Below are positions 1-17,307 of a stretch of DNA of 64,000 bases, piece after piece; position 1 is the first letter of the stretch; each line of letters starts with the position of its first letter. Source of the DNA: Lactobacillus sp. PV012 (GTDB taxonomy: Bacteria; Bacillota; Bacilli; Lactobacillales; Lactobacillaceae). The notes beneath the pieces were generated by a model. The model ran no database searches. It was not told where the DNA came from and saw nothing but the letters and a program-made list of their open reading frames with translations. Made by a program: the position numbers and the translations under genes. The stretch is from contig NZ_CP041983.1 in assembly GCF_014522325.1 (NCBI RefSeq), positions 496,001 through 560,000 of the forward strand, read 5' to 3'.

Positions 1-1625
1 TTGTTGATACTGATAAAGAAGATCAAATTAAGGTTAGTGAGCTCCCTAAGCTTGAAAAATTAATGGCTAAGGCAATTAAAAATGGTGAAAAGATTGAATT
101 CACTAAGATGAAGAAGTCTGAATTACAAGAGATCTTCAAAGATGATGCTTATAAACTTGAATTATTAAAAGATCAACCTGATGAAGTTGAAGTTTATAAA
201 TTAGGAGATTTTGTAGACTTTGGTTTTGAAGCTCTTCTTCCTAATACAGGAAAAATTAAGAACAACTTCAAATTATTATCAGTAGCTGGTGCTTACTGGT
301 TAGGTAAGTCATCTAATCCAATGCTTCAAAGAATTTTTGGGACTGCCTTCTTTAAGAAGAGTGCTTTAGAAGAAGATCTTAAGCGTCGTCAAGAAATCAA
401 AGAAAGAGATCACCGTACTATTGGACGTGATTTAGATTTATTCTTTGTTGATCCGAAGGTTGGTGCTGGGCTTCCTTACTGGATGCCTAATGGTGCCACT
501 ATTCGTCGTACTATTGAACGCTACATCGTTGATAAAGAAGTAGCGGATGGTTACCAACATGTTTACACTCCAGTTTTAATGAATGTGGATGCTTACAAGA
601 CTTCCGGACACTGGGCACACTATCGTGATGATATGTTCCCACCAATGGATATGGGTGATGGCGAAATGCTTGAATTACGTCCAATGAACTGCCCATCACA
701 CATTCAAATTTACAAGCACCACTTACGTTCATACCGTGAATTGCCAATTCGAATTGCTGAATTAGGTATGATGCACAGATATGAAAAATCTGGAGCTTTA
801 TCAGGGCTTCAACGTGTACGTGAAATGACCTTAAATGATGGCCACACATTTGTCTCCTTAGATCAAATACGTGAAGAATTTGCTAAAGTATTGAAGTTAA
901 TTATGGATGTTTACAAGGACTTTGATATCACTGATTACTACTTCAGATTATCTTATAGAGATCCTAAAAATACTGATAAGTATTACGCAAATGATGAAAT
1001 GTGGGAAACTGCACAAAGCATGCTTAAGGCAGCCATGGATGACCTTGGCTTAGATTATGTTGAAGCTGAAGGTGAAGCAGCCTTTTATGGTCCTAAGCTT
1101 GATATTCAAACTAAGACTGCTTTGGGTAATGACGAAACAATGTCAACTATTCAATTAGACTTCATGCTTCCTGAAAAATTTGGCTTGACTTACACTGGTA
1201 AAGATGGAGAAGAACACCGTCCAGTGATGATTCACCGTGGTATTGTTGGTACGATGGAAAGATTCATTGCTTACTTAACTGAAATTTACAAGGGTGCTTT
1301 CCCAACTTGGCTTGCTCCAGTTCAAGTAAAAATTATTCCAGTTAACTTAGATGCTCATGGTGATTACGCAATGAAAGTTAAAGAAGAACTTACAAAGCGT
1401 GGCTTTAGAGTTGACGTAGACATGAGAAATGAAAAGATGGGTTACAAGATTCGTGAATCACAAACTCAAAAAGTTCCTTATACTTTAGTATTGGGTGACG
1501 AAGAAATGAATAACAATGCTGTTAATGTTCGTCGCTACGGAACAGAAGAACAAATTAATAAGAGTATGGATGAATTCATTAATGAAATTGATTCAGATGT
1601 AAAATCTTACTCACGTAAAAACTAG
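1..1625 (+). CDS. thrS: Threonyl-tRNA synthetase, 3' part (5' end outside window)
   Basis: Charges tRNA-Thr with threonine in the cytoplasm. The reading frame is open from base 3, so the gene begins before the window; about 540 of the family's roughly 640 residues are visible. The missing part would hold the TGS domain and most of the editing domain. Class II core motifs are present: the motif 2 region with MMHRYEKSG, and motif 3 with [10 protein letters not shown]. The zinc-binding Cys (MNCPSH) and two His (DGHTF, MIHRG) are intact. The last ~100 residues match the anticodon-binding domain ([10 protein letters not shown]). A terminator follows the stop. Identification is firm; only the start is unseen. 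Confidence 0.97.
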
Positions 1626-1658
1626 AAAAAATGCTCCAAGAAATTGGGGCATTTTTTC
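1626..1658 (+). terminator. Rho-independent terminator after thrS
   Basis: An eight-pair stem (AATGCTCC with GGGGCATT, one G-U pair) is followed by a run of six T, directly after the thrS stop codon. Confidence 0.85.
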
Positions 1659-1890
1659 TATACATTTGTTATTTAATTACTTGAAAAAAATCCTAATTTT
1701 TGTGTTTAAAAATGTAATCTGAAAGTGCCATTTTACTTGAATTTAATGGTAATTGTAAGTAAAATTGGTATATAAATGTAAATTGGGGAAACTAGTTTCT
1801 CAATAAATAATTCGATTAATACTTTAAAAAGTTGTTTTTTTATTTTTTTATAAAAATTATATTATGAGCTAAAGGTAAGGGGTTATAAAG
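1659..1890 (+). promoter_or_regulatory. Upstream region of the glycosyltransferase genes, possible extended -10
   Basis: This AT-rich gap holds no open frame. A TGGTATATA sequence near 1766-1774 could serve as an extended -10 element, leaving a leader of roughly 110 bases before the TTG start at 1891. No convincing -35 is visible. The ribosome binding site is the AAGGTAAGGGG stretch at 1873-1883. Confidence 0.35.
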
Positions 1891-3447
1891 TTGATCTATT
1901 TTATTAATTTTGGAATGCCAAGTCATAAATCTGGGATTGAGCATGCTGAATTAAAACGCTTAAATTTATTTAAGAACCACCATCAACCTGCAAAAATCAT
2001 TGCACGTGATTGGAATCGTGAATTACACAAGACTGCTAATGCATCTGGTGTAGATGACGATAGCTTATTAGGAATGTTTGACTACTTTCAAGATGCAGAA
2101 CATGTACCAGCTAAAAAGGTAACTGTTGAAGATTTAGATTTTGGACTTGAAAATACAGAACGTGTTGATGAACCTGACAAAAATCGCTACTTGGTAACTA
2201 GTGAACAAGGAAAATTAGTCGCACGTGTAAACTATGATCCTAACGAAGATAAACAAGTAGTTTCGACAGAATTGTTTGATGAATACGGTAATTTATATCG
2301 TGTAGATCACTATGATAGTCGTGGCTTTAGATCATTAATTCAATGGTACACACCAGATAATCACGTTGGTAACGAAGAATGGTTAACGCCAGATGGTAAA
2401 ACAATGATTCGTACTTTTAATAAGTTTGATATTCATCATAAGTTAGTGAAAACTGGTTGGTGGCTTCAAGAAAAGAATGGTGAAATTCATACTTTTGATA
2501 CTATTGATGAATTATTTGAACATTTCTTAAATAGAATTAATGAAAAGGGCAATAACATCTTTGTTTTGGACCGTTCACTTTTAGCAGACGGAGCTTTAAC
2601 TCGCTTGAAGAAACCAGCTTATACTGTAATGCACTTGCATAACTCTCAAGCTGGTGATGCTCAAGATCCACTGCACTCAATTGTAAATAACAACTATGAA
2701 TATGCTTTGGCAAACTTAGATGAATATTCAGCTGTTGTTTCTGCCACTCAACGTCAAACAGATGACGTGATTGAACGCTTTAAGCCAAAAGCTAAAATGT
2801 ACACAATCCCTGTAGGTATTGTTGATAATGAAACTTTAAATGCAGATCACATTAGTGAAGATGAAAGAACCTTTGGTAAAGTGATTGCAGTAGCGCGTAT
2901 TGCTTATGAAAAGCGTCTTGATGACTTAGTGCGTGCAATTAAGTTAGTTCATGACGAAATTCCAGAAGTAACTTTAGATTTATATGGTTATGCAGACTCT
3001 TCTAACAATTACGGTGAAAAACGTAAGATTGAAAAATTAATTAAAGAATTAAACTTAGAAGATGTAGTAACTTTCAAAGGTTATACTACTAATATTCCAG
3101 AAATTGAAAATAAAGCACAAGTATTTGGTTTGACTTCACGTATGGAAGGATTTAACTTAGCAATCATGGAAGCCATTTCTCATGGTGTTGTGGGTGTAAC
3201 TTATGATGTAAACTACGGACCAAATGATATCGTCCAAGATCAAAAGAATGGTTATATTGTTGATTTTGGTGATTACAAAGCTTTAGCAGATCGTATGATT
3301 AAGATCTTTAAAGATAAGAAATTAATGCAACAATTAAGTGATGGTGCTTACGAATCTAGTGAACGTTATTCTGATGCTAATGTTTGGAAAGCATGGAAAG
3401 AATTAATTGATGATGCAAAAGAAACTTTGAAAGATGAGGTAAGATAA
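1891..3447 (+). CDS. GT4-family glycosyltransferase, GtfA/SdgB/TarM-like (adhesin glycosylation)
   Basis: Predicted retaining glycosyltransferase of 518 residues, cytoplasmic, no signal peptide. The N-terminal part contains the beta-meander insertion typical of the GtfA/TarM/Sdg group (around residues 75-190). The C-terminal Rossmann domain carries the EX7E motif (E419 and E427, EGFNLAIME) used by GT4 enzymes to bind the nucleotide sugar. It starts with TTG behind a strong AAGGTAAGGGG site. The next glycosyltransferase follows with no gap and the Ser-rich adhesin lies just downstream, so the likely acceptor is serine in that stalk, as SdgA/SdgB act on the neighbouring Sdr proteins in staphylococci. 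Sugar identity cannot be read from sequence. A teichoic-acid glucosyltransferase (TagE-like) is the main alternative. Confidence 0.8.
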   Translation: MIYFINFGMPSHKSGIEHAELKRLNLFKNHHQPAKIIARDWNRELHKTANASGVDDDSLLGMFDYFQDAEHVPAKKVTVEDLDFGLENTERVDEPDKNRYLVTSEQGKLVARVNYDPNEDKQVVSTELFDEYGNLYRVDHYDSRGFRSLIQWYTPDNHVGNEEWLTPDGKTMIRTFNKFDIHHKLVKTGWWLQEKNGEIHTFDTIDELFEHFLNRINEKGNNIFVLDRSLLADGALTRLKKPAYTVMHLHNSQAGDAQDPLHSIVNNNYEYALANLDEYSAVVSATQRQTDDVIERFKPKAKMYTIPVGIVDNETLNADHISEDERTFGKVIAVARIAYEKRLDDLVRAIKLVHDEIPEVTLDLYGYADSSNNYGEKRKIEKLIKELNLEDVVTFKGYTTNIPEIENKAQVFGLTSRMEGFNLAIMEAISHGVVGVTYDVNYGPNDIVQDQKNGYIVDFGDYKALADRMIKIFKDKKLMQQLSDGAYESSERYSDANVWKAWKELIDDAKETLKDEVR

Positions 3448-4938
3448 TTGAAATATCTTGTAGGGGAAAATGTTTTTACTTTTAATTCAGGTACTGAATT
3501 TTCACAATTTCAAAGATTAGAAGCATTTAAAAATAATAATGAAGATGCTGTTTTATTGTTACGTAACTACAATAGAATGCTTAGCAATGAATTAAAAAAA
3601 CATGGCTTAAGACAAAAAGATGTCATTAACATGTATGACTATTTCCAAGGAACAGTTCATACAAGACGTAAGGAACAATCATTACGTTTACTTGATAGTA
3701 TTCCGCTAAAGGATTACCACATTGTTGGTGTAGATAATAACCATTCAAATATTGAATACAAGGGTAAAAAGATTGCTGATATTCGGGTGATGCCAGGAAC
3801 TGTTGGCCTAATTGGTAATATTGAATACTATGATTCACTAGGTCAAGCTGCAGTTAAGGAATACTGGGATTGGCGTGGCTTTAAGTCAATGGTAGAAACT
3901 TATCATCCAGATGGTTCAATTGCCATGCAACAATATCTTAATTTAGATGGTAAGCCAGTTTTAGAAGTAAGTCATATGTATATTGGTAAGCAAGTTTTAC
4001 CAACTATGTGGAAGCTTTTGGATTACAAGGGCCATGATTTCCAATTTAGAACTGAAAATCAATTATTTACTTTCTTCTTAAATGAAATCAATAATGCTAA
4101 CCCTGGTACTTTCATTTCAGATCGTCGTACTTTAGACAGTTCTGTATTAAATGTAGAAAATGCAGAAGGTAAAATTGCATATCTTCACAGTGTGCCATTT
4201 GCTGACTATCGTCGTCCACAACAAGGAATTATGGATGTTTACAATAAAGCAGTAAATGGTGAAGACGGAAAAGAATTTGATGTAGTAGTTTTACCAACTC
4301 AAGATCAAACTGATGAAGTGAAAAAACTTGCTACTTCTAAGAGTAAAATTGCTGCTGCTCCAGATAGTTATGTTAAAAAAGCAGCTCGTCCTAAGAAGTT
4401 AGGTAAGGAAATCAATGTGGTTTACGTTGGACGGTTAGCTGATGATAAGAATACTTTAGATGTGATTCGTGCCTTCAAGCATATTCATGATAAAGTACCA
4501 GCAGCTCGTTTGAAACTTCAAGGTTATTATTCAGGTAGTGACTATCAACAAAAAGTTGAAGATTTAATTAATAAATTAGAAATTAAAGATGTAGTTGAAG
4601 TTTTACCATATGAGCCAAAAGAAAAGATTGTTAAGGATGCAACAATTTTCTTGAATGCTAGTCTTAGCGAAGGCTTTGGAATGAACATGCTGGAAAGTCT
4701 TGGTTATTCAGTTCCAGTTGTTACTTATGCAGCTGCATACACTAAGGATAATTTAGTAGAAGATGGAGTTAATGGTTATGCCGTTACTACAACTACACCT
4801 ACTAAATTAGCTCAAAAAGCAGTAGATGTTTTGCAAGATGAAGATTTGTACAAGCGTTTGTCTCAAGGAGCAAGTGAAACTGCTAAGAAGTATAGTGAAG
4901 AAGCATTTATTAACAGTTGGAAGCAGATTTTAGATTAG
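3448..4938 (+). CDS. Second GT4-family glycosyltransferase, GtfB/SdgA-like
   Basis: A 496-residue relative of the preceding gene; the two start alike (SGIEHAELKR versus SGTEFSQFQR) and share the N-terminal meander domain and C-terminal Rossmann fold. It begins with TTG immediately after the upstream stop, so the pair is translationally linked. Its EX7E motif is intact (E408 and E416, EGFGMNMLE), unlike streptococcal GtfB, which serves mainly as an acceptor-binding partner. Both proteins may therefore be catalytic, for example one priming serine and one extending the sugar, but a GtfA/GtfB-like hetero-oligomer is equally possible. An imperfect hairpin lies between this gene and the adhesin. 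Confidence 0.78.
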   Translation: MKYLVGENVFTFNSGTEFSQFQRLEAFKNNNEDAVLLLRNYNRMLSNELKKHGLRQKDVINMYDYFQGTVHTRRKEQSLRLLDSIPLKDYHIVGVDNNHSNIEYKGKKIADIRVMPGTVGLIGNIEYYDSLGQAAVKEYWDWRGFKSMVETYHPDGSIAMQQYLNLDGKPVLEVSHMYIGKQVLPTMWKLLDYKGHDFQFRTENQLFTFFLNEINNANPGTFISDRRTLDSSVLNVENAEGKIAYLHSVPFADYRRPQQGIMDVYNKAVNGEDGKEFDVVVLPTQDQTDEVKKLATSKSKIAAAPDSYVKKAARPKKLGKEINVVYVGRLADDKNTLDVIRAFKHIHDKVPAARLKLQGYYSGSDYQQKVEDLINKLEIKDVVEVLPYEPKEKIVKDATIFLNASLSEGFGMNMLESLGYSVPVVTYAAAYTKDNLVEDGVNGYAVTTTTPTKLAQKAVDVLQDEDLYKRLSQGASETAKKYSEEAFINSWKQILD

Positions 4939-5049: not shown

Positions 5050-8000
5050 ATGTCTAAAAAAGATTTACATAGAAAAGAGGTCTTCTCTTTACGTAAGTTA
5101 ACAGTAGGTCTTGCTAGTGTGATGATCGGTTCATTTTTCTTCGTAGCTCATGATACAGATACTGTACATGCTGATGAAATTAGAGAACCTGAATCAGCAG
5201 CTGTGGCACAATCTACATTAGATAAAGCTAAAGAACTTGCCAGTGATAGTAACAAAGAAGTTGCAAGTTCAAGTAGTGACTCAAGTGCTGCAAGTCAAGC
5301 AAGCAGTGCAGCCGATTCAGTAAGTTCAGCAAGTGATGTTGCAGGTGCAAATGTGAGTTCAGCACCTAGTGAAGTAAAAGCAAGTACTGAAAATAAGGTG
5401 GCTGACTCCCAAGCTAGTCATAGTAGTGGGGATGAATTGGCAGCTAGTGCAAGTTCAATGCCAGCAAGTAGCGAAAATAAGGCTACTTCTGATTCAGCAG
5501 CTGCTCATCATGAAGTAGCTAAAGAAGAAACTACAAATAAGTCAGTTGCTACTAATAAAGTTGCTGAACAAACTACTTTATTTGAAACTAAAACAGCAAG
5601 TTTTCTTGCTACTGGAGTTAACAATTCAGCAGCACTTGCTCAATTAGGCGAATCTAAAGTTACAACTCCCGCTTCAAATGCTACTGCTGTTGCTAATGCT
5701 AGTGAATTTGTTAATGCAATTACTAATACCAGCGCAGCTGTAATTGATGTAACTGACAACATTGATTTGAGTTCACAAAGAACAATCACTGTTTCTTCAG
5801 ATGCAGCTTTACGTGATGTGACAATTAATGGTAATGGTCACACCATTAGCTTTGGTAATGCCTACCTTGATATTAAGAGCAAGGATGATCAAAAGCTTAC
5901 TATTTCTGGTGCAACTATTACTGGTTCTAACACTAATGGTATTGTTTCTATGGATAGTGGTAACAATGCCAGTGTTGAATTTGATGGTGTTACTTTCAAT
6001 GGTACAGGTTTAGTAAATAATACTAATACTAACGTAGTCTTTAGTGGAACCAATAACATTACTACTAATAAGAATGCTTATAGTGTTAATGCCAAGAGTG
6101 TAACTGTACAAGATGGCTCAAATACTACAATTTCTACTAATGCAGGTGCAATTTCTGTTCCAGCTAATACCGATGGTATTAACGTAGCAGGTGATTTAAT
6201 GCTTCACCGCACCGGTTCAACTGCTTTAAGTGGTGGTACTGGATTTGTAGATGCATCTTCACCAATTAACATTACTGGTAACGGTAAGTTAGATGTTGAA
6301 TTTGATGAAGTAGCAGGCCTAACTTCGAAAATGGGTGGTATTTACATTCATAATGGGGCAGATTTAACTATCAAAGATAATGGTAATTTAACGCTAAACA
6401 ATAATGATAGTTCTACTTTAGATACCACTGTAATTAACGTTGCAAACTCTGGTGATACAAATATTAATGTTCTTGATAATGGATCACTTAATATGAAGGG
6501 ATCTGTAAATCAATCAGTTATCTACTTCCAAGGTAATGGTAACTTACGTGTTAACGGAGAAAAAGCAGCCGTTAATATTGATGTAACTGGTAAAGCTGCT
6601 AGTCGGGTATTTGACTTGAAAACCGGTAATGGTATTTATGTCAACAACGGTGGAACTTTCGATATTGCGTATGAAAATAACAGCGGAAACGGTTATAACG
6701 TTATCTATGCTGCGGCAGGTACGGTTTTATCATTTGGTAATAACTCAAATGTTAAGTTAACAAGTAGTGGTAAAAATTCTACTAATTTACTAGGTGGTAA
6801 AGGTGCTGCTACCATTACTATTTACCGTCCAGATTCCGTAGTCTTTGATGTTCAAGGTAGCGGTGCAATTATTTCTGGCTTAGGCGGAGATATTAATGCT
6901 CACTATGTTGAAATGAAAAACTCTGCTAACAGTGACTGGAGTAGTGCCTACAAAGATGCTGATTACAATATTAGTAAAAAATCAGCAACTACACTTGGTG
7001 AAACTAACACTGACACAACTGCTGGTAATAGTCTTTTAGCAAGTTTAAACAATGGTAAGTACTTTGCATTTGGTACTCCTGATATGCACAATGCTATTAC
7101 TTTAGATGATAGCAGTAAGATTACTGATCAAACTAAGACTTTAACTGGTACTACTAACGCCAACGGTTATGTAACTGTTCACTACTACAATGGTAGTGAT
7201 AATAATACTGTAGTTAGTGGTTTAACTTATGGCCTGGCCGCACCAGGTGAAACTAGTTCAGACTTCGTTGTTAAGGCAGATGATAATGGTAAATGGAGTA
7301 TTGATTTAACTAATGCTCCACTTACTGTAGGTAGTGTAATTGTTGTGGAATCAATGTCACAATTCACACCTGCATTTGCGACTGCATATGTTGCTAGTGC
7401 CGATGCTACCTACACTGACTATTCCCAATATGTTGACAATGCTAATTCGATTGCTTCAATTGCCACTAGTCAAGCAAGTCAAGCTGATTTAAGTAGTGCA
7501 ACTGCAGAATTAGCAAGTGCTGCTAGTGTAGCAACTTCAATTTCTGAGTTTGATCAGCAAATTACAAACTCAATTCCTACAATTGGACCAGATTCAAACT
7601 ATACTTTAACTGGATTTCCACCTGCTGCTGTTCAAGATGATATGGGTTCACTAGCAGAACTTGATGGTTATGAAGATGATGATGGCAATTGGATTACTCC
7701 AGTAGCGAATATTAGCGCTTCATTGGCAAGTGCAGCTACGGCAGCAAGTAGTGCAAGTAGTGCTGCTGCAAGTATTGCCAGTGCAGTTGCTAAGTATAAT
7801 AGTGCGGCTAAGCCAGTGATGGATGCTGCCAGTCAAGGTTCAGTTGCCGCAAGTGCAGCCTTAGAAGAATTGAATTATTCTTTAGCAGCCAGTCAAGCCA
7901 GTGCTGCGAATAACTCTACTTTAGCAACCAGTGCCTCAAATACTGCCAACTCATATGCTGCAATTGCAAGCGCAAATGCCAGTGCAGCTGCTAAAGCTGG

Positions 8001-11000
8001 AAGTTTGAGTTCAAATGCTGTTTCTTTGGCTCAAAGTTTGAGTACTAATATTCAAAATGATGTTAACTCAGTTGCGAGTTATGCAAAAGATACTATTAGT
8101 TCTGTTCAAAGTGCGCAAAGTCAGTATCTCTCAGCAGCAAGTACAGCAACTAGTTTAACGGCAAAAATTATTAGTGAAACAGCTACTGCTCTAGATTCTA
8201 TCGCAAGTGTGGCCACCAGCAATGCATCAGTAGCGACTTCAGTAGCTAATGAATTGAGTAGCTATAGTAGTAGCTATCCAAACGGCATTACTGTTTCTGG
8301 ATATCCGATTGGTACCGCCAGTAATGTAAAGCCTGTTGAAACTAAGGTAGATTCTTTGTCTAGTGTAGCTGACAGTGTTGCTAGTTTAGCCGTAGGTCTC
8401 TCAAATGTTGCTAGTTCAGCTCATGAAACAGCTGCACAGTTAAGTTATGCAGCTATTGATGAAAGTGCTATGTATAGTGCTACCAGTGCAGCAGCTCAAA
8501 AGGCTAGTGATTTAACTGCTGCTATTGAAGCTTTAAGCCAGAATAATACTAGTGAGGCGGCTGCAAGTTTGAGTGCCGCTGCAAGCAGTAATACTGATTT
8601 TGCAAATATTGATAATCAAATTAATAATTTGGTACCAATTCTTGATAAAACTAGCACTTCAAGCCCAATTGGGGGAGCCCAAAGTATTGCTAATAAAGCA
8701 AGTGCACTTGCAGGAATTGGTGAAGCTGCAAGCACATTTGCAAAGAAGGAAGGGTTAGCCGCTGCGCAAATCCTGCTCTTTGAAGTTCAAGTGGCAGCTG
8801 CTAAGGAAACAATTACAAGTGCTGCAAGTGCTGCAAGTAGTGCTCAAACGGTTGCTTCTAGTGCTACCGCTTCAGTAGCTACTAAAAGTAATGCAATTAG
8901 TCAATTAGTTGATCAGTATCCAGATCAATTAGCCTCTTATGCTAATGCAGCAAGTAGTGCATATAACATCTCATCTACTGCAACTGGGGATGTTCCCAGT
9001 CAGGGGGCAAAAATAAATGCAGCTTCAAGTAGTGTTGCAAAGGCAACAAGGGTAGTACGTGAAGGTAATAATAAAGCCAATGGTGCTATTACAAACGCTG
9101 CGAATGCTCTTGCTGGGGATGTTAATACGGCGAATGCAATGTATATAATGGCCCCTGATACAGCAGGCGCAATGCAATCGCCCTATTATCAGACTTTATA
9201 TAAATCTATGGCAACTCTGCCTCAACAGTTGGCATCTTATGCTAGTGAGGTAAATGCAGTAACCAGTAGTGCTGCTGCTGCTCAGCTTGCAGCTTCAAGT
9301 GCTGAATCTGATGCGCAAAGAGCTAAGCAAGCAATTGCTGATATTGATTTAGCTTATGCAAGTGCAGCATCTGCTTACATTGATCTTAAGTCGCAAGCAG
9401 CTTCAACTGCTGTTTCAAGTACAACTAGTTCAGCTAATGCGGCAAGTGCAGCAACCGGCAATGCTCAAGCTAACCAAGCTGCAGCAAGTACAGCCGCATC
9501 AAATGCTAAGGATAGTCTATCTAATGCAAATGCTGAAATTGCAAGTGTAGCAACTGATTTAACTAGTTTAACTAATTTATCTAGTGCTAATGCTATTAAT
9601 AAGGTTGTTGCTGATAATTTGAATAACGCTACTAAAGCTAAATCTAATGCTGATAGCTATGCTAAGGTAATTGCAGATAATAGTGACCTTGCAAGCTCAG
9701 CTGCAAGTACTGCTGCTCGAGAGGCAAATAGCGCAGCTGCTGCAAGTACTGCAGCTTCAACCGCTGCTAGTGCTGCTGCAAGTTACGCTGCTATTGTTGA
9801 TAGTGCCAAGGCAACTGGTGATACTTCTCTAGCAAGTAGTGCTGCATCTCAAGCCCAAGCTCAAATTGCAAGGGCTAGTCAAGCAAACAGTGAAGCTCAA
9901 AGTGCAGCTAGTGCAGCAAGTTTAGCTCAATCTACTGCTAATTCAGCATTAGCTACAATTGCAACTGCTCAAACTTCACTTACCAGTGAAGCAAATAAGA
10001 TTGCTTATTACTTAAGTGCAGCTCAAACTAATGTAGAACAAGCTAGTGCAGCAAGTTTAGCTGCTAGTCAAGCAAATTCAGGAGCAATTGCTGATAAGAC
10101 AAACACTACTCAAACTCAAACGGACATTAATAGTGCAGCTAGTGATATTAAGAATGCAAGCAGTGCTGCAAATTCTAGCGCAAGTGAAGCTGGTTCATAT
10201 TCTTCAAGTGCCGCAAGTCAAGCAGCTTCATTAGCTACTGATCTTACTTCTTACTCAGATAATCCAATTGTAGTTAGTGCAGCCAGTGCTGCTAAGAGTT
10301 TAGCTACCGTTTCAAGTACAGCTGCAAGCAATGCTGCTGATCAAGCACAAACTGCTAAAGATTTAGCCTCAACTGCTGATTCATTAACTGCAGCTGCAAG
10401 TACTGCAGCAGCTAATGCAAGTAGTGCAGCCAGTGCTGCAAGTAGCGCAAATGATGCTGCAAGCAGCTATGCTGCTTTAGGTAATATTGCCAAGGCACAA
10501 TCAGCAGCCAGTGCAGCTAGTGCAGCCAGTGAAGCTGCAAGCACTGCCGCAAGTACCGCAGCAAGTTTATTATCAGATGCTAAGAAGACTTCTGAAAGTG
10601 CCTCAAGCGCTGCTAGTGCAGCTGACAAGTTTGCTAGTGAGGCAAAAGTCGCTGCTGTAACTGCTTCTGTTGCAGCAAGTGATGCTGATCGAGCAATTTT
10701 AGCAGAAAGCTATGCAAGTAATGCTGCAAGTCAAGCTAGCCAAGCTCAATCAAGTGCTGTAAGTACCGCAACAACTTCAACTGCTGTTTCATCAAGTGCT
10801 TCTCAAGCAACTGATTCAAGTAGCCAAGCTACCAATACTGCATCAAGTGCTGGCAAGAATTCAGATGACGCTACGAGCACAGCAGGTGAAGTAGCTTCAA
10901 TGGCAAGTGCACATCCGGCTAACTCATTAGTAGCTAGTGCTGCAACCAGAGCAAGTGATGATTCTGAAGTTGCAAGTAGTGCGGCTACTAAGGCAAGCAG

Positions 11001-14000
11001 TGCCGCTGATGTAGCAAGTTCAGCTGCTCAAGATGCTGCAACTCAAAGTACAGCTGCAACTGCAGCCAGTGAAGCCGCAAGTAGCGCAGCCGCCAAAGCC
11101 TCAAGTGCAGCCAGTGAAGCTGCAAGTTTTGCTAAAGAAGGAAATGTCAGTGCCGCAAGTAGTGCTGCTAGCGTGGCTTCAGCAGCTAATTCAGATGCAG
11201 CAAAAGCTTCTAGTGCTGCAATTAGTGCTAGTGAAGCCGCAAGTCTTGCTAACTCAATTGCTTCGAGTGCCGCAAGTGAAGCAGCTTCATACCAAGCTAT
11301 TGCTTCAAGTGCAGCTAGTGATGCAGAAATTGCTAAGAGTGAAGCAAGTGATGCAATTATCGGGGAAAGTGCTGCAAGTCAGGCTAGTGAAGAAGCTAAA
11401 TTAGCCAATACCGCTTCAACTGCAGTTAACTCATACGAAGTAGTTGCAAGTAGCGCTGCTAGTGTTGCAAGAGATTACAACAGTAACGCAAATAGCGCAT
11501 CTAGTTCAGTTGCTCATACTGCTGAAGATACTAAAGCTATTGCTGATTCAGTAGCCTCAATGGCAAGTGAACATGCAAGTAATGAAGTAGTATCTAGTGC
11601 CGCCGCCAAAGCCTCAAGTGCAGCAACTGCTGCAAGTTCAGCTGCAAGTAGTGCTGCTAGTGTAGCAGCTTATGTAAGCTCAATTACTACTGATGCCGCA
11701 ACACAAAGATCAATTGCGGCTGACCAAGATCACGTTGCTAGTGAACAAGCAAAACTTGCAAATAGTGCTGCAAGCGCTGCTGATGCTGCGTATAAGGCAA
11801 GCGATGCTAGTGCAGCAGTAAGTTTAGCCGCTGTAGCTAGTGCCGCTAAGAGTGCTGCGCAAAGTGCTGAAGCAGTTGCTTCAAGTGCCGCAAGTCAAGC
11901 TCTTGTAGATGAAAGTGAAGCAAATAAATCAATTGCAACTCTTAATAGCTATGCTCAAGAGGCTTTGAACTTTGAAAGCCAAGCTAGTGCCGCTAAGAGT
12001 GAAGCAATTGATAATCTCACAAAAGATAGCATAGCGGACTCAATTGCAAGTGGTGCAGCCAGTGCAGCTAACTCTTCTTCAATTAAAACAAGTGATTATG
12101 CAAGTTCAGCTGCTGTTTCATCTAGTGCAGCTCAAACTGAAGCTAACAAAGCTAGTCAGTCTACTAGTTCAGCAACAAATATTGCTAGTGAAGCAAGTAG
12201 TACTTCTAGCGATGTGAGTTCAATGGCTTCAGCTCATCCTACTAACTCATTAGTTGCAAGTGCAGCTGTAGTTGCCAATAGTGCCGCTAAGAAAGCAAGC
12301 AGTGCTGCTAGTGCAGCAAGTGTAGCCAAGAGCAATGCTGATTCAGCAAGTAGTATGGCAAGTTCAGCTTATGAAGATGCAAAATCAGCAGATACTGTTG
12401 CTAAAAGTGCTGCTAGTGCAGCAAATAAAGCTAAGAGTGAAGCAGATGCCGCTTCTGCAGCTGGTAGTGTGTCAGCTGCCAATAGCGCTGCAAGTTTAGC
12501 TAGAAGTGCAGCGAGTGTAGCAAAGAGCGCAGAAAGTGCAGCTCAAGCTGCAGCTAGAAAAGCAAGTAGTGCTGCAAGTATTGCAAGTCAAGCAGCGACT
12601 GCTGCTAGTTCAACAGCTGATATTGCTAGCCAAGCATCTACGGCTGCCAGTGTAGCCAAGAGTGAGGCGATTGAAGCAATCAGAGGTGAAAGTGCTGCTA
12701 GTGCCGCAAGTTCTTCAGCGAGCGATGCTGAGACAGCTCATACTAGTGCAAGTTCAGATGAAAGTGCAGCAAGCAGTGCTGCTAGTGCAGCAGGAAGCTA
12801 CAGTGATATTGCTTCAGAAGGTGCTAGCGCAGCTGCAAGTTCATCAAGTCACGCAAGTGAAACAGCTAGTGAAGTAGCTTCATTAGCAAGTGACCATCCA
12901 ACTAACTCGGTTGTAGCCAGTGCCGCAGAAAAAGCTTCAAGTGCAGCTAGTTCTGCCCAAAGTGCTGCAGATGTTGCAAGTAGTGCTTCAGCAGTAGCTT
13001 CAAATGCTGCAAGTGATGCTGTAATTCAACGCTCAACTGCTAGTGAACAGGAAAAAGCAGCAAGTGAACAAGCAAGCATTGCTAACTCCTTAGCTAGCGC
13101 AGCTGATAGTGCTTATAAAGCAAGTGATGCTGATAAGGCTGAAAGCTTAGCTAGTCAAGCTTCCGAAGCTGCAAGGCTTGCAAGCTCAGCAGCTAGTGCA
13201 GCTTCAAATGCTGCAAGTCAAGCAATTAGCGATGAAGAAACTGCTAAGAGTGCAGCATCTGTTGCTAAGAGTGCTGCTGATGATGCCGCAAAATTTGATG
13301 ATGAATCGACTAAGGCCAAGAGTGAAGCAGAGGACAACCTGAACCAAGGTAGTGATTCTGTTGATAGTGCTAGCGCCTCATCAAGTGCAGCATCTGGCTC
13401 AGCTGATCAAACAAGTTCATATGCAAGCATTGCAAGTAGTGCTGCAAGTTCAGCAGGTTCAGATGAAAGTGCAGCATCAACTTCAACTAGTGAGGCAAGT
13501 TCTTCAGCAAGTCATGCAGGCGATACTGCCAGTGAAGTAGCCTCAATGGCCAGTGAACATTCAGATAATTCACTTGTATCTAGTGCTGCCGAAAAAGCAT
13601 CAAGTGCTGCGAGCCTTGCTTCAAGTGCCGCAGATACAGCATCCAGTGCCACAAGCGATGCGTCAGAAGCTGCAAGTTCAGCAAGCGACGAATACAAGAA
13701 GGCCAGTGAAGCAGATTCAATAGCTAAGAGTGCAGCAAGTGAGGCATCAGTTGCCAAAAGTGAAGCGGAAAGTGCCGCTGCAGCAGGTGACACTAGTGCA
13801 GCAAGTTCTGCTGCAGAAAAGGCCTCAAGTGCCGCTTCTGTTGCCAAGAGTGCCGAAAGTGCTGCAAGTAGTGCAGCTTCAACAGCTCAAAGTGAGGCTA
13901 GTGTAGCAAGTAGTGCAGCCAGTGTAGCTAGCGAAATGGCTAAAAAGGCCAGTGAAGCAGATAGTATTGCAACAGATGCTAAGAGTGAAGCAAGTGATGC

Positions 14001-17000
14001 AATTAATGGTGAAACCTCAGCAAGTCAAGCAAGTGAAGATGCTAAGAGTGCAGATGTTTCCCATACTAATGCAACTTCTTATGAAAGTGCCGCAAGTAGC
14101 GCAGCTAGTGCTGCAGGTAGTTACAGCAATATTGCTTCAGAAAATGCAAGTAATGCTTCTAGTTCAGCAAGCCACGCAAGTGACACTGCTAGTGAAGTAG
14201 CATCGATGGCTAGCGAACATCCAACAAATTCACTAGTATCTAGCGCTGCAGACAAGGCATCAAGTGCCGCAAGTAGTACTAAGAGTGCAGCAGATGTAGC
14301 AAGCAGTGCAGCAGATGTAGCAAGCAGTGCAGCAAGTGATGCGGTAAATCAACACACTAAGGCTAGCCAAGCAGATCAAGTAGCATCAAGTGCTGCATCT
14401 GTAGCAAATAGTGCAGCTGATGAAGCAGATAGTTTTGCTAAAGCTGGAAATACTAGTGCTGCAAGCAGTGCAGCTAGTGTAGCTAGTGCTGCAAGTTCAG
14501 CTGCCAAAAGTGCAGAAGAAGAAGCTTCAAATGCAGCAAGTCAAGCAATCGCAGATGAAAAGAAAGCTTCAGAAGCTGCAAGCATCGCCAAGAGTGCCGC
14601 TGATGATGCAGCTAACTTTGACAGTGAAGCAACGAAGGCTAAGAGTGAAGCAGAAGATAACTTAAACCAAGGCAGTGATGCTGTTGATAGTGCTAGTGCA
14701 TCTTCAAGTGCCGCATCAAGTTCAGCCGATAAAACTAGTTCATATGCAAGCATCGCAAGTAGTGCTGCAAGTTCAGCAGGTTCAGATGAAAGTGCTGCTT
14801 CGACTTCAACTAGTGCCGCAAGTTCTTCAGCAAGTCATGCAGGAGATACTGCTAGTGAAGTAGCCTCAATGGCAAGTGAACATTCAGATAATTCACTTGT
14901 ATCGAGTGCCGCAGACAAGGCTTCAAGTGCCGCAAGTCTTGCTTCAAGCGCTGCCACAACTGCATCCAGTGCAACAAGTGATGCTTCAAGTGCCGCAGAC
15001 AAGGCAAGCGAAGCATACAATAAGGCAAGTGAAGCAGATTCAATTGCCAAGAGCGCAGCTAGTGAAGCATCAGTTGCTAAAAGTGAAGCGGAAAGTGCAG
15101 CTGCAGCAGGTGATACCAGTGCTGCAAGTTCAGCCGCAGAAAAAGCAGCCAGTGCAGCCAGTGCAGCTAAGAGTGCAGAAAGTGCTGCAAGTACAGCAGC
15201 TTCAAGTGCTCAAAGTGCCGCTAGTGTAGCAAGTAGTGCTGCAAGTGTGGCAAGTGAAATGGCCAAGAAGGCTAGCGAAGCAGATGAAGAAGCATCAGAC
15301 GCTAAAGATGAAGCTGAAGATGCTATTAAGGCCTCTGACGCTGCAAGTCATGCCAATGAAGACGCACAAAGTGCGGAAAGTTCCCACACTGACACTAGTT
15401 CATACGCAAGTATTGCAAGTAGTGCTGCGAGTGCAGCAGGAAGCTACAGTAACATTGCTTCAGAAAATGCTAGTGCTGCAAGCAGTTCAGCAAGCCATGC
15501 AAGTGAGACTGCCAGTGAAGTAGCCTCAATGGCCAGTGACTATCCAAATAATTCAGTTGTTGCTAGCGCTGCAGAAAAAGCCTCAAGTGCCGCAAGCAGT
15601 GCCAAGAGTGCAGCAAACGTTGCAAGTAGTGCAGCTAAAACTGCAAGTAGTGCCGCCAGCGATGCAAGCAAGCAACGTGAAAAAGCCGCTAAAGCTGATC
15701 AAGATGCTTCAACTGCCGCAAGTCTTGCTAATGCTGCTGCTAGTGCTGCGTCAAGTTATGCTAAAGAAGGAGATGCTAGCGCAGCTCAAAAGGCCACTGA
15801 TATTGCAAGTAGTGCCAGTGCCGCTGCTAAGCGTGCAGAAGATGTGGCTTCAAGTGCTGCTAGTCAAGCAATTGAAGATGAAAAGAAGGCTTCTCAAGCT
15901 GCAAGTCTAGCCAAAAGTGCCGCTGATGAAGCTGCTAAGTTTGATAGTGAAGCAACTAAGGCTAAGAGTGAAGCAGAAGACAACTTGAACCAAGGTAGTG
16001 ATGCTGTTGATAGTGCCAGTGCTTCATCAAGTGCTGCATCTAGTTCAGCAGATCAAACAAGTTCATATGCAAGTATTGCAAGTAGTGCAGCAAGTTCGGC
16101 AGGTTTAGATCAGAGTGCTGCATCTACTTCAACCAGTGCTGCAAGTAGCTCAGCAAGCCATGCAGGAGATACTGCCAGCGAAGTAGCTTCAATGGCCAGT
16201 GAACATTCAGATAATTCACTAGTTTCAAGTGCAGCCGCTAAGGCTTCAAGCGCAGCTAGTGTAGCCTCAAGTGCTGCGAATACTGCATCAAGCGCAACAA
16301 GTGATGCTTCAAGTGCAGCCAGCAAGGCAAGCGAAGCATACAATAAGGCAAGTGAAGCAGATTCAGTTGCCAAGAGTGCAGCAAGCGAAGCAGCAGTTGC
16401 CAAGAGTATCGCATCAAGTGCCGCTTCAGCAGGAGATACAAGTGCAGCAAGTAGTGCCGCTTCTAAAGCAGCAAGTGCAGCAAGTGCAGCTAAGAGTGCC
16501 GAAAGTGCAGCAAGTACAGCAGCTTCAAGTGCTCAAAGTGCAGCTAGTGTAGCAAGCAGTGCTGCGAGTGTAGCAAGTGAAATGGCTAAGAAAGCCAGCG
16601 AAGCAGATAGTATTGCAACAGAAGCTAAGAGTGAAGCAGAAGAAAGCTTACAGAATACACCTTCTAGTGCCCCTGAACAAAGTAGTTCAGCTTCACAAGC
16701 AAGTAGCGCCGCTTCTAGTGAAGTTTCAAGTTCTGCAAGCTCAGCTACTTCAAGTGCAAGCTCACAGGCTACTGACTACAAGAAGCCAACTACAATTCTT
16801 ACTAATACCACTCAAGGTAGAGTTCCAAGTGCAAATGCAACTGTAAGTAACTTGCCAGAAGGAAGTAAAGTAGTTTGGATTAAGAAACCAGATGTTTCTA
16901 AACCAGGAATTCAAAAGGGTGTAATTCAAATTACTTATCCTGATGGTCGAACTGAAAGAATAACTATTGAAGTAAATGTACGTCCAAAGGCTACTCAAAT

Positions 17001-17307
17001 TAGTGCAAGACCTCATCGTTCACCTAAACGTACAGCTTCAAGAAATCGCTATGGAAACTCTAACGCTCGACGTGCTCAATGGTTAAGAGATCGTGGATAT
17101 GTAGTAATTGTAGGACCAGATGGTGAAATTATTAGCTACTACAAGGCTAAGGATGGTATTGGTAGAATCGTCGAAGATAAGAAAGAATTGCCACAAACTG
17201 GTGCAAGCCAATTAGATAATATGGCTGCAATTCTTGGATTAAGCTTAGCAAGTTTAGGATTTATCTTTGGATTAGCTGATATCAAAAAGAGAAAAAAGGA
17301 AGATTAA
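5050..17307 (+). CDS. Giant Ser/Ala-rich repeat LPxTG surface adhesin (4085 aa)
   Basis: Secreted, sortase-anchored surface protein. Residues 1-41 are a signal peptide with a YSIRK-type motif (FSLRK at 12-16, then a GLASVMIG core) and likely cleavage at VHA-DE. Residues 42-190 are Ser/Ala-rich. Residues ~215-620 are short Asn/Gly/Val repeats typical of a right-handed beta-solenoid (pectate-lyase-like adhesive domain). An Ig-like domain lies near 696-783. The stalk (~790-3910) is almost entirely Ser and Ala with scattered Lys/Glu/Asp, in heptad-like ASxAAxx patterns. A Rib-like domain with a YPDG motif spans ~3911-3981. The LPQTG signal is at 4047-4051, followed by a membrane helix and a KKRKK tail. 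ATG is preceded by AAGGGAG. The two upstream glycosyltransferases probably glycosylate the stalk. The signal is YSIRK-type, not the KxYKxGKxW type used with SecA2, and no SecA2/Asp genes are nearby. The ligand is unknown. Confidence 0.93.
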   Translation: MSKKDLHRKEVFSLRKLTVGLASVMIGSFFFVAHDTDTVHADEIREPESAAVAQSTLDKAKELASDSNKEVASSSSDSSAASQASSAADSVSSASDVAGANVSSAPSEVKASTENKVADSQASHSSGDELAASASSMPASSENKATSDSAAAHHEVAKEETTNKSVATNKVAEQTTLFETKTASFLATGVNNSAALAQLGESKVTTPASNATAVANASEFVNAITNTSAAVIDVTDNIDLSSQRTITVSSDAALRDVTINGNGHTISFGNAYLDIKSKDDQKLTISGATITGSNTNGIVSMDSGNNASVEFDGVTFNGTGLVNNTNTNVVFSGTNNITTNKNAYSVNAKSVTVQDGSNTTISTNAGAISVPANTDGINVAGDLMLHRTGSTALSGGTGFVDASSPINITGNGKLDVEFDEVAGLTSKMGGIYIHNGADLTIKDNGNLTLNNNDSSTLDTTVINVANSGDTNINVLDNGSLNMKGSVNQSVIYFQGNGNLRVNGEKAAVNIDVTGKAASRVFDLKTGNGIYVNNGGTFDIAYENNSGNGYNVIYAAAGTVLSFGNNSNVKLTSSGKNSTNLLGGKGAATITIYRPDSVVFDVQGSGAIISGLGGDINAHYVEMKNSANSDWSSAYKDADYNISKKSATTLGETNTDTTAGNSLLASLNNGKYFAFGTPDMHNAITLDDSSKITDQTKTLTGTTNANGYVTVHYYNGSDNNTVVSGLTYGLAAPGETSSDFVVKADDNGKWSIDLTNAPLTVGSVIVVESMSQFTPAFATAYVASADATYTDYSQYVDNANSIASIATSQASQADLSSATAELASAASVATSISEFDQQITNSIPTIGPDSNYTLTGFPPAAVQDDMGSLAELDGYEDDDGNWITPVANISASLASAATAASSASSAAASIASAVAKYNSAAKPVMDAASQGSVAASAALEELNYSLAASQASAANNSTLATSASNTANSYAAIASANASAAAKAGSLSSNAVSLAQSLSTNIQNDVNSVASYAKDTISSVQSAQSQYLSAASTATSLTAKIISETATALDSIASVATSNASVATSVANELSSYSSSYPNGITVSGYPIGTASNVKPVETKVDSLSSVADSVASLAVGLSNVASSAHETAAQLSYAAIDESAMYSATSAAAQKASDLTAAIEALSQNNTSEAAASLSAAASSNTDFANIDNQINNLVPILDKTSTSSPIGGAQSIANKASALAGIGEAASTFAKKEGLAAAQILLFEVQVAAAKETITSAASAASSAQTVASSATASVATKSNAISQLVDQYPDQLASYANAASSAYNISSTATGDVPSQGAKINAASSSVAKATRVVREGNNKANGAITNAANALAGDVNTANAMYIMAPDTAGAMQSPYYQTLYKSMATLPQQLASYASEVNAVTSSAAAAQLAASSAESDAQRAKQAIADIDLAYASAASAYIDLKSQAASTAVSSTTSSANAASAATGNAQANQAAASTAASNAKDSLSNANAEIASVATDLTSLTNLSSANAINKVVADNLNNATKAKSNADSYAKVIADNSDLASSAASTAAREANSAAAASTAASTAASAAASYAAIVDSAKATGDTSLASSAASQAQAQIARASQANSEAQSAASAASLAQSTANSALATIATAQTSLTSEANKIAYYLSAAQTNVEQASAASLAASQANSGAIADKTNTTQTQTDINSAASDIKNASSAANSSASEAGSYSSSAASQAASLATDLTSYSDNPIVVSAASAAKSLATVSSTAASNAADQAQTAKDLASTADSLTAAASTAAANASSAASAASSANDAASSYAALGNIAKAQSAASAASAASEAASTAASTAASLLSDAKKTSESASSAASAADKFASEAKVAAVTASVAASDADRAILAESYASNAASQASQAQSSAVSTATTSTAVSSSASQATDSSSQATNTASSAGKNSDDATSTAGEVASMASAHPANSLVASAATRASDDSEVASSAATKASSAADVASSAAQDAATQSTAATAASEAASSAAAKASSAASEAASFAKEGNVSAASSAASVASAANSDAAKASSAAISASEAASLANSIASSAASEAASYQAIASSAASDAEIAKSEASDAIIGESAASQASEEAKLANTASTAVNSYEVVASSAASVARDYNSNANSASSSVAHTAEDTKAIADSVASMASEHASNEVVSSAAAKASSAATAASSAASSAASVAAYVSSITTDAATQRSIAADQDHVASEQAKLANSAASAADAAYKASDASAAVSLAAVASAAKSAAQSAEAVASSAASQALVDESEANKSIATLNSYAQEALNFESQASAAKSEAIDNLTKDSIADSIASGAASAANSSSIKTSDYASSAAVSSSAAQTEANKASQSTSSATNIASEASSTSSDVSSMASAHPTNSLVASAAVVANSAAKKASSAASAASVAKSNADSASSMASSAYEDAKSADTVAKSAASAANKAKSEADAASAAGSVSAANSAASLARSAASVAKSAESAAQAAARKASSAASIASQAATAASSTADIASQASTAASVAKSEAIEAIRGESAASAASSSASDAETAHTSASSDESAASSAASAAGSYSDIASEGASAAASSSSHASETASEVASLASDHPTNSVVASAAEKASSAASSAQSAADVASSASAVASNAASDAVIQRSTASEQEKAASEQASIANSLASAADSAYKASDADKAESLASQASEAARLASSAASAASNAASQAISDEETAKSAASVAKSAADDAAKFDDESTKAKSEAEDNLNQGSDSVDSASASSSAASGSADQTSSYASIASSAASSAGSDESAASTSTSEASSSASHAGDTASEVASMASEHSDNSLVSSAAEKASSAASLASSAADTASSATSDASEAASSASDEYKKASEADSIAKSAASEASVAKSEAESAAAAGDTSAASSAAEKASSAASVAKSAESAASSAASTAQSEASVASSAASVASEMAKKASEADSIATDAKSEASDAINGETSASQASEDAKSADVSHTNATSYESAASSAASAAGSYSNIASENASNASSSASHASDTASEVASMASEHPTNSLVSSAADKASSAASSTKSAADVASSAADVASSAASDAVNQHTKASQADQVASSAASVANSAADEADSFAKAGNTSAASSAASVASAASSAAKSAEEEASNAASQAIADEKKASEAASIAKSAADDAANFDSEATKAKSEAEDNLNQGSDAVDSASASSSAASSSADKTSSYASIASSAASSAGSDESAASTSTSAASSSASHAGDTASEVASMASEHSDNSLVSSAADKASSAASLASSAATTASSATSDASSAADKASEAYNKASEADSIAKSAASEASVAKSEAESAAAAGDTSAASSAAEKAASAASAAKSAESAASTAASSAQSAASVASSAASVASEMAKKASEADEEASDAKDEAEDAIKASDAASHANEDAQSAESSHTDTSSYASIASSAASAAGSYSNIASENASAASSSASHASETASEVASMASDYPNNSVVASAAEKASSAASSAKSAANVASSAAKTASSAASDASKQREKAAKADQDASTAASLANAAASAASSYAKEGDASAAQKATDIASSASAAAKRAEDVASSAASQAIEDEKKASQAASLAKSAADEAAKFDSEATKAKSEAEDNLNQGSDAVDSASASSSAASSSADQTSSYASIASSAASSAGLDQSAASTSTSAASSSASHAGDTASEVASMASEHSDNSLVSSAAAKASSAASVASSAANTASSATSDASSAASKASEAYNKASEADSVAKSAASEAAVAKSIASSAASAGDTSAASSAASKAASAASAAKSAESAASTAASSAQSAASVASSAASVASEMAKKASEADSIATEAKSEAEESLQNTPSSAPEQSSSASQASSAASSEVSSSASSATSSASSQATDYKKPTTILTNTTQGRVPSANATVSNLPEGSKVVWIKKPDVSKPGIQKGVIQITYPDGRTERITIEVNVRPKATQISARPHRSPKRTASRNRYGNSNARRAQWLRDRGYVVIVGPDGEIISYYKAKDGIGRIVEDKKELPQTGASQLDNMAAILGLSLASLGFIFGLADIKKRKKED
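10228..16840 (+). repeat. Higher-order tandem repeat in the adhesin stalk (1323 bp = 441 aa)
   Basis: A marker motif resembling SEVASMASEH recurs with its first codon at 10888, 11548, 12211, 12871, 13534, 14194, 14857, 15517 and 16180. Spacings alternate exactly 660 and 663 bases. A degenerate earlier copy lies in register at 10228. A second marker (EDNLNQGSD) occurs once per double unit at 13330, 14653 and 15976, exactly 1323 bases apart. The unit is therefore a 441-residue repeat made of two related halves of 220 and 221 residues. Copies differ at many synonymous sites. The repeat fades upstream of about 10.2 kb into less ordered Ser/Ala sequence. Confidence 0.9.

What the first reader, a model, noticed from the sequence alone, without database searches (positions are those of the whole stretch)
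10228..16840. Exact 441-residue super-repeat in the adhesin stalk, alternating 660/663 bp
Nine marker codons (10888 to 16180) are spaced 660, 663, 660, 663, 660, 663, 660, 663 bases with no exception, and a once-per-cycle marker recurs at exactly 1323 bases (13330, 14653, 15976). In a region that looks like random Ser/Ala, this is strict two-level order over 6 kb. 441 is 63 heptads; the half-units are 31 heptads plus 3 and plus 4 residues, the a-to-d and d-to-a steps of a coiled coil. That suggests a structural ruler, not simple low complexity.
Basis: partly seen in the sequence, partly recalled or inferred. Interest (0 to 1): 0.72.

Follow-up and report, generated by a model that had tools for sequence, protein, structure and literature searches.

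The report
Fixed-length helical rod in bacterial adhesin
A lactobacillus surface protein carries its binding head on a long rod made of repeated three-helix units, and the length of one helix in the unit is the same in many related bacteria, which points to a built-in structural measure and not to meaningless serine-alanine filler.

Summary
In detail: identity at lag 441 residues is 0.63 against 0.20 (sd 0.01) for shuffles. Corrections: the spacing before the first marker is also 660, so strict alternation starts at 10888, and the array ends near 16650. The 660/663 difference is one extra residue near unit position 159 in every second unit, not an a-to-d/d-to-a step. Each unit has three Ala-core heptad runs (10, 10 and 9 heptads; inferred). 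AlphaFold2 (mean pLDDT 96.8) predicts elongated three-helix bundles joined by an unbroken 143-residue helix, a spectrin-like layout; the extra residue lies in that linker. The later same-type units are not fresh copies (dS 0.65-1.01, dN/dS 0.12-0.15). In homologous arrays, the turn-to-turn distance across the short helix is exactly 75 residues for 140 of 238 anchors, in 25 of 32 reading frames (shift null: mean maximum 16, largest 46), while linker length varies. The Pfam scan found no model for the repeat; NCBIfam's Ser-Ala-175 covers it only partly. New variant of a known kind.

The parts
5050..17307 (+). 4085-aa sortase-anchored adhesin: YSIRK signal, PF20585 head, Ser/Ala helical stalk, Rib domain, LPQTG anchor
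5071..5145 (+). YSIRK signal (aa 8-32)
   Evidence: PF04650
5683..6012 (+). PF20585 pectate-lyase-like adhesive domain (aa 212-321) in the head
   Evidence: E 6.6e-13; head aa 214-782 is 29% identical to P0003 and L095
8023..16647 (+). conserved helical stalk, aa ~992-3866, about 13 module lengths
10228..10887 (+). unit 1 (220 aa)
10888..11547 (+). unit 2, type A (220 aa)
11548..12210 (+). unit 3, type B (221 aa)
12211..12870 (+). unit 4, type A (220 aa)
12871..13533 (+). unit 5, type B (221 aa)
13534..14193 (+). unit 6, type A (220 aa)
14194..14856 (+). unit 7, type B (221 aa)
14857..15516 (+). unit 8, type A (220 aa)
15517..16179 (+). unit 9, type B (221 aa)
16180..16647 (+). unit 10, truncated after ~156 residues
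13996..15351 (+). two complete predicted three-helix bundles joined by a B-type linker helix
   Evidence: AlphaFold2 model
12022..12024 (+). extra codon of unit 3 in the linker (alignment column 159; placement uncertain by a few residues)
13345..13347 (+). extra codon of unit 5 in the linker
14668..14670 (+). extra codon of unit 7 in the linker
15991..15993 (+). extra codon of unit 9 in the linker
16783..16983 (+). Rib domain (aa 3912-3978)
   Evidence: PF08428
17179..17304 (+). cell-wall anchor (LPQTG; Gram_pos_anchor 17.9 bits, below its cut-off of 20; 23.2 bits in the genome search)
1891..3447 (+). glycosyltransferase GT1, SdgA/SdgB/GtfA-like (below those models' cut-offs)
3448..4938 (+). 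glycosyltransferase GT2, SdgA/SdgB-like (below those models' cut-offs)

Best explanation
The region is a tandem array of ~220-residue helical modules that forms a stiff monomeric stalk. Each module gives one short helix (~72 residues) and one long helix (~143 residues). The long helix runs through from one three-helix bundle into the next, as in spectrin, so each bundle is made of the second half of one long helix, a short helix, and the first half of the next long helix. Ala fills most core positions; Ser lies mostly on the exposed positions b, c and f, where the neighbouring glycosyltransferase pair could add sugars (inferred). Because three helices of about ten heptads must match end to end, the short helix is held at a fixed length, while the linker can gain or lose residues. 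The 660/663 alternation is a one-residue difference in the linker, passed on when an A-B dimer of modules was duplicated long ago. At ~10.8 nm per module the stalk would reach ~140 nm and hold the PF20585 head away from the cell wall (length inferred, assuming a straight rod). Shown: repeat order, indel pattern, conserved distances, selection, gene neighbourhood. Predicted: fold. Inferred: glycosylation, length, function.
Confidence: 0.75

Rival explanations
1. The exact spacing only reflects recent tandem duplication of a 1323-bp block; it has no structural meaning.
For: Same-type units are more alike than neighbours (mean 0.55 against 0.47), and all 221-type units form one clade, so the dimer is a duplication unit. 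Extra dimers are found in the window and G044 lineage only.
Against: Synonymous divergence of the youngest pairs is already 0.65-1.01 with dN/dS 0.12-0.15; positional orthologs in another genus keep the unit lengths; units with ~20% mutual identity in P0003 keep lag 220; the 75-residue distance holds across eight genus labels.
Confidence: 0.1
2. The heptads form an intermolecular parallel coiled coil (two or three chains), as in M proteins or trimeric autotransporters, not an intrachain bundle.
For: Clear 7-residue periodicity and Ala at a and d.
Against: Two conserved turn motifs (H-P-x-N and G-D/N) at fixed spacing, three runs of matched length, and confident antiparallel hairpins in both AlphaFold2 models. 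Oligomers were not modelled.
Confidence: 0.1
3. A disordered or polyproline-like, heavily glycosylated Ser-rich stalk, as in serine-rich repeat proteins; helices in the model are an artefact of Ala content.
For: Ser is 27% of the array; a glycosyltransferase pair is next door; a related Ala-Ser-rich protein (SpcB of L. rhamnosus) was predicted both disordered and helical (passages of PMC3584209).
Against: Position-specific Ala and Ser, rare and fixed Pro and Gly, and the absence of indels are not expected of a disordered stalk; no accessory SecY2 or SecA2 reaches its cut-off in this genome.
Confidence: 0.05

Closest known systems
TIGR04319 SerAla_Lrha_rpt (NCBIfam 'Ser-Ala-175 repeat protein')
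   Same: Ser/Ala repeat of surface proteins; matches the array (32.5 bits) and related arrays more strongly (L049 116, L088 111, L086 108 bits).
   Different: All five proteins with a match are below the curated cut-off of 120 bits, and the L085 array has no match; the model is 175 positions, the unit here 220/221. It looks like a description of the shorter branch of the same superfamily.
Giant1-3 proteins of Apilactobacillus kunkeei (PMC12863079; abstract, passages and one results section read)
   Same: Beta-solenoid-type head on a long predicted alpha-helical rod in Lactobacillaceae.
   Different: Published repeat lengths are 62, 103 and 366 residues and the C-terminal domains are DUF5776; here 220/221, Rib domain and LPQTG. 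Homology between the two rods was not tested.
SpcB of L. rhamnosus and the Ser/Ala-rich LPxTG protein of L. paracasei (passages of PMC3584209 and PMC3716772)
   Same: Very large Ala-Ser-rich surface proteins; in L. paracasei encoded beside glycosyltransferases.
   Different: Described as imperfect ~100-residue or 111-residue repeats without a defined fold; no 220-residue module is reported in the passages seen.
Spectrin repeats
   Same: Tandem three-helix bundles joined by a continuous helix (topology recalled; ours).
   Different: Unit is about twice as long as the ~106 residues recalled for spectrin, Ala core, no spectrin match in Pfam at E up to 1.
Periscope proteins (passages of PMC8201768 and PMC9704523)
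   Same: Wall-anchored rod of tandem domains, repeat number differing between relatives.
   Different: Periscope proteins vary at population level with high DNA identity of repeats; here same-type units 5-10 differ by 16-30% at the DNA level in the pairs printed, and only species-level genomes were seen.

Membership tests
TIGR04319 Ser-Ala-175 repeat | score at or above the curated cut-off of 120 bits | tested here: not met
   32.5 bits for the window protein; L049 116.3, L088 111.1, L086 107.9, L010 piece 20.5, no match for L085
TIGR04319 Ser-Ala-175 repeat | repeat length near 175 | tested here: not met
   220/221; the shorter branch L049/L050 has 161-175
Serine-rich repeat protein (SRRP) | dedicated accessory SecA2/SecY2 system in the genome | tested here: not met
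   one SecY-like match 196.4 bits (cut-off 249.6); one SecA-like match 905.4 bits (cut-off 930); genome 96% complete
Serine-rich repeat protein (SRRP) | linked GtfA/GtfB-type glycosyltransferases | tested here: inconclusive
   two adjacent SdgA/SdgB/GtfA-like genes, all below the model cut-offs
Serine-rich repeat protein (SRRP) | Ser residues are O-glycosylated | not testable with these tools
   needs mass spectrometry or lectin blots
Spectrin repeat (PF00435, accession recalled) | sequence match to the family | tested here: not met
   Pfam scan at E up to 1 lists four other families only
Spectrin-like topology | three-helix bundles joined by a continuous helix | tested here: met
   in prediction only: helix 87-228 through an A linker, 153-295 through a B linker
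Periscope protein | anchored surface protein with tandem folded repeats | tested here: met
   (fold predicted)
Periscope protein | repeat-number variation within a population | not testable with these tools
   only one genome per species was searchable; between species 10, 10, 7, 7 and 5 units
Giant1-3 of A. kunkeei | alpha-helical rod of 62-, 103- or 366-residue repeats with DUF5776 C-terminus | tested here: not met
   220/221-residue repeats, Rib domain and LPQTG
Trypanosome haptoglobin-haemoglobin receptor type bundle | elongated three-helix bundle fold | tested here: inconclusive

The most novel reading that the evidence does not exclude
The alternating 13- and 14-residue steps across the linker helix (A units one residue short of heptad register, B units in register) set two different rotations between successive bundles, so that the A-B dimer, ~21 nm long, is the true structural repeat of the stalk; across the family the short helix is the fixed ruler and the linker helix is the tuning point that sets twist and stiffness.
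Probability: 0.25. Interest if true: 0.7.

Novelty: new variant of a known kind. Interest (0 to 1): 0.5.

Why it matters
Very large Ser/Ala-rich surface proteins of lactobacilli are usually described as low-complexity or 'Ser-rich' stalks whose fold is open (for SpcB both disorder and helix were predicted; passages of PMC3584209). Here a module with defined ends, a testable fold and a conserved length can be named, expressed and solved. It gives a domain boundary (start at the linker, not at the Pro turn), a simple sequence ruler (Pro turn to Gly turn, 75 residues) for annotating such proteins, and a way to estimate their reach, up to reading frames of 13,630-14,133 residues in another genus.

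Tried and rejected
Heptad remainder (31 heptads plus 3/4) as a coiled-coil step: rejected, because the remainder is the sum of two turns and one linker (reading) and the extra residue is in the linker.

Recent duplication as the whole explanation: rejected on synonymous divergence.

I first took P0003/P0004/P0006/P0007 for streptococcal proteins because of the KxYKxGKxW signal; P0003 is 94.7% identical to the L095 reading frame of a genome of the same family, so that label, which stands in notebook entries and script labels, is wrong.

The indel control for the first 820 residues against G004, L. rodentium and L. fastidiosus is invalid, because those proteins lack the window's head; only the G044 comparison is sound (90 substitutions and 6 indels in the N-terminal 820 residues, 82 substitutions and 1 indel in the units), and it is too small to prove a difference. 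The homologous signal/Ser-rich stretch (W 1-206, G004 7-190) needs gaps (218 columns for 206 and 184 residues), while stalk 992-1701 aligns 710 to 710 residues without gaps with G004, L. rodentium and the MAG, and with small gaps with L. fastidiosus (711 columns).

Heptad tracing by a home-made Viterbi script gave a clear result for L087 only (18 heptads unbroken through the linker of a 221 array); for L079, L081, L083, L084, L085 and others it was noisy or empty and is not used.

Dropped before counts: 2 of 40 extracted units (G004 and L. rodentium terminal units, which run into Ser-rich linker) were left out of the 38-unit tree and column statistics. L009 (undetermined bases) was left out of the AlphaFold2 rows and of the anchor counts. 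P0007 was in the 33 frames but not in the 32. Reading frames under 600 aa or under 28% Ala+Ser were left out.

Not seen in the fold searches: no spectrin chain appears in the listed rows; that is no evidence against the topology. Paper searches that did not find a description of a 220-residue Ser/Ala module: (open-licence PMC papers only); one search found no paper that holds TIGR04319 or Ser-Ala-175. and one search scored only the candidates sharing most words, so further homologs are likely. One search scored at most 7 candidates per genome and drew 397 genomes from a larger group.
Full report
WHAT IS THERE. The reading frame 5050-17307 encodes 4085 residues: a YSIRK signal, a PF20585 adhesive domain at residues 212-321, a long Ser/Ala region, a Rib domain at 3912-3978 and an LPQTG anchor. 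Upstream stand thrS and two adjacent glycosyltransferase genes of the SdgA/SdgB/GtfA kind, both below those models' cut-offs; downstream are infC and rplT.

CHECK OF THE OBSERVATION. The marker positions are as written. Identity at lag 441 is 0.632 against 0.204 (sd 0.009, maximum of 500 shuffles 0.236). The unit before the first marker is also 660, so the series is 660, 660, then 663/660 alternating; the last unit breaks off near 16650. Alignment of ten units shows one internal length difference, one residue near column 159-160, present in the four 221 units. With that residue removed the nine complete units stack without a gap at 31-84% identity, mean 0.51, against 0.21 for a composition shuffle.

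ANATOMY OF A UNIT. Over 38 units from six genomes, Ala is invariant or nearly so every seven residues in three runs: 15 to 78, 90 to 153, and 166 to 222. The steps between runs are 12, 13 (14 in 221 units) and 13. So 220 = 63+12+63+13+56+13. In the window's units Ala is 84% at position a and 56-58% at d and e, while Ser is 51-54% at b, c and f (positions assigned by me from the invariant Ala).

COPIES OR CONSTRAINT. Neighbouring units of the same type look like recent copies at the protein level, but units 6, 8 and 10 and units 7 and 9 differ at synonymous sites with dS 0.65-1.01 and dN/dS 0.12-0.15 (Nei-Gojobori). A tree of 38 units puts all 15 221-type units in one clade (support 100/99) and shows units 1 to 4 or 5 to be orthologous by position between the window, G044, G004, L. 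rodentium, a MAG and Limosilactobacillus fastidiosus. Unit numbers are 10, 10, 7, 7 (one split by a frame break) and 5; the MAG array is cut by a contig end. So the A-B dimer is old, and alternation is inherited. In the 38 units there are two interior indel events: the ancestral extra residue and a 4-residue loss in one G044 unit. Upstream of the units, stalk residues 992-1701 align 710 to 710 without gaps with three of four other species at 82-88% identity. My first indel control was invalid for three of four species, because their proteins lack the head; only the G044 comparison stands and it is small (6 indels per 90 substitutions outside, 1 per 82 inside).

THE RULER. In the genus, 5 of 75 genomes have the unit; in a sample of the family, 31 of 397 genomes in 10 of 40 genera (E at most 1e-8). 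I fetched 20 further stretches from 14 genomes and took from these and the earlier loci every reading frame of at least 600 aa with at least 28% Ala+Ser, plus the window protein and P0003: 32 frames. Anchors were P-x-N/D and G-D/N/S/T in Ala/Ser-rich surroundings. Of 238 P anchors, 140 have a G exactly 75 residues on; 25 of 32 frames have at least one; the next distances are 40 (29 pairs), 80 (19) and 54 (12). Shifting the G anchors 2000 times gave a largest single-distance count of 15.9 on average and 46 at most. The 25 frames carry eight genus labels (my tally), but several come from one genome, so they are not independent. The seven frames without it include the shorter branch (54 residues, that is 75 minus 21; periods 161-175; L049 and L050). 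From the G to the next P, 88 modules give 146 (36), 145 (24), 147 (9), 150 (6), 138 (4), 148 (3) and six others. So the short helix is the fixed part and the linker helix the variable part. Unit spacings by profile: L079 24 times 221 in a row, L085 6 times 220, L087 8 times 221, L088 4 times 223, L086 3 times 213, L095 219-220 (ten of its twelve spacings); irregular stretches in L081, L082, L083 (a 215 and a 139), L084, L091 and L092. P0003 and its near-identical L095 frame keep lag 220 with unit identities of ~20-34%, the best evidence that length is kept without recent copying.

NEIGHBOURS. Both glycosyltransferases (GT1 82-86%, GT2 69-72% identity) lie directly upstream in all five orthologous loci examined (L008, L009, L010, L045, L046). 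In the 20 further stretches, both types are found in 4 (L085, L087, L090, L095), a GT2-like gene alone in 4 (L089, L093, L094, L096), and none in 12, many of which do not include the upstream flank. In L. fastidiosus the cassette lies in other surroundings, which suggests transfer (reading of the frames by eye). A link between such enzymes and a large Ser/Ala-rich LPxTG protein was proposed before in L. paracasei (passage of PMC3716772). No accessory SecY2 or SecA2 reaches its cut-off.

HOW IT WORKS (mechanism). Export by the signal peptide, sugar transfer to exposed Ser by the paired enzymes (inferred), sortase anchoring, and a rod of about 13 modules of ~10.8 nm (72 residues at 0.15 nm) that would hold the head ~140 nm from the wall if straight (inferred). 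Four of six orthologs have the stalk without the PF20585 head: two shown by Pfam (L010, L046) and two by alignment (L. rodentium, MAG). The stalk may therefore have a use of its own, or carry other heads.

COMPARED WITH WHAT IS KNOWN. The Pfam scan at E up to 1 gave no model for the repeat; NCBIfam's Ser-Ala-175 repeat matches below its cut-off. Giant1-3 of A. kunkeei combine a beta-solenoid head with a predicted helical rod of other repeat lengths (section read). SpcB of L. rhamnosus was described as an Ala-Ser-rich region predicted both disordered and helical (passages). Periscope proteins are the functional analogy (passages). I did not find the 220-residue module or the 75-residue ruler described (open-licence papers only). 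I rate it a new variant of a known kind.

Noticed in passing
L079-L084 (G106 and G140, genus label g33): Reading frames of 13,630, 13,654 and 14,133 residues built of ~221-residue modules; if straight, a stalk of about 0.6 micrometre (inferred from ~60 modules).
   Followed up: partly
L010, L046, L008, L009 against window 5683-7400: Four of six orthologs lack the PF20585 head; the stalk follows the signal and Ser-rich stretch directly.
   Followed up: partly
window 11548-15516 against L045: Units 3-5 are nearly identical in DNA between the window and G044 (dS 0-0.01) while units 7-8 differ with dS 0.60-0.65, which suggests a mosaic by recombination.
   Followed up: no
L008 4925-13059: The L. 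rodentium array is split between two overlapping reading frames (2272 and 470 aa), a frame break or assembly error.
   Followed up: no
G122:C1:2325195-2329655 (L085): One array carries an in-frame TAG between its modules, perhaps a decayed gene.
   Followed up: no
L010 1-21593: The GT-GT-adhesin cassette lies in other surroundings in Limosilactobacillus fastidiosus, which suggests horizontal transfer.
   Followed up: no
L049 2501-12295 (G000:C1:163500-173295): Second giant adhesin of 3265 aa in the same genome with the shorter 161-175-residue Ser/Ala repeats and Rib, long Rib and FIVAR domains.
   Followed up: partly
G000, L001-L007: Seven LPXTG-type anchors in the 1.54-Mb genome, six of them besides this one, in open frames of 853 to 3265 aa.
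   Followed up: no
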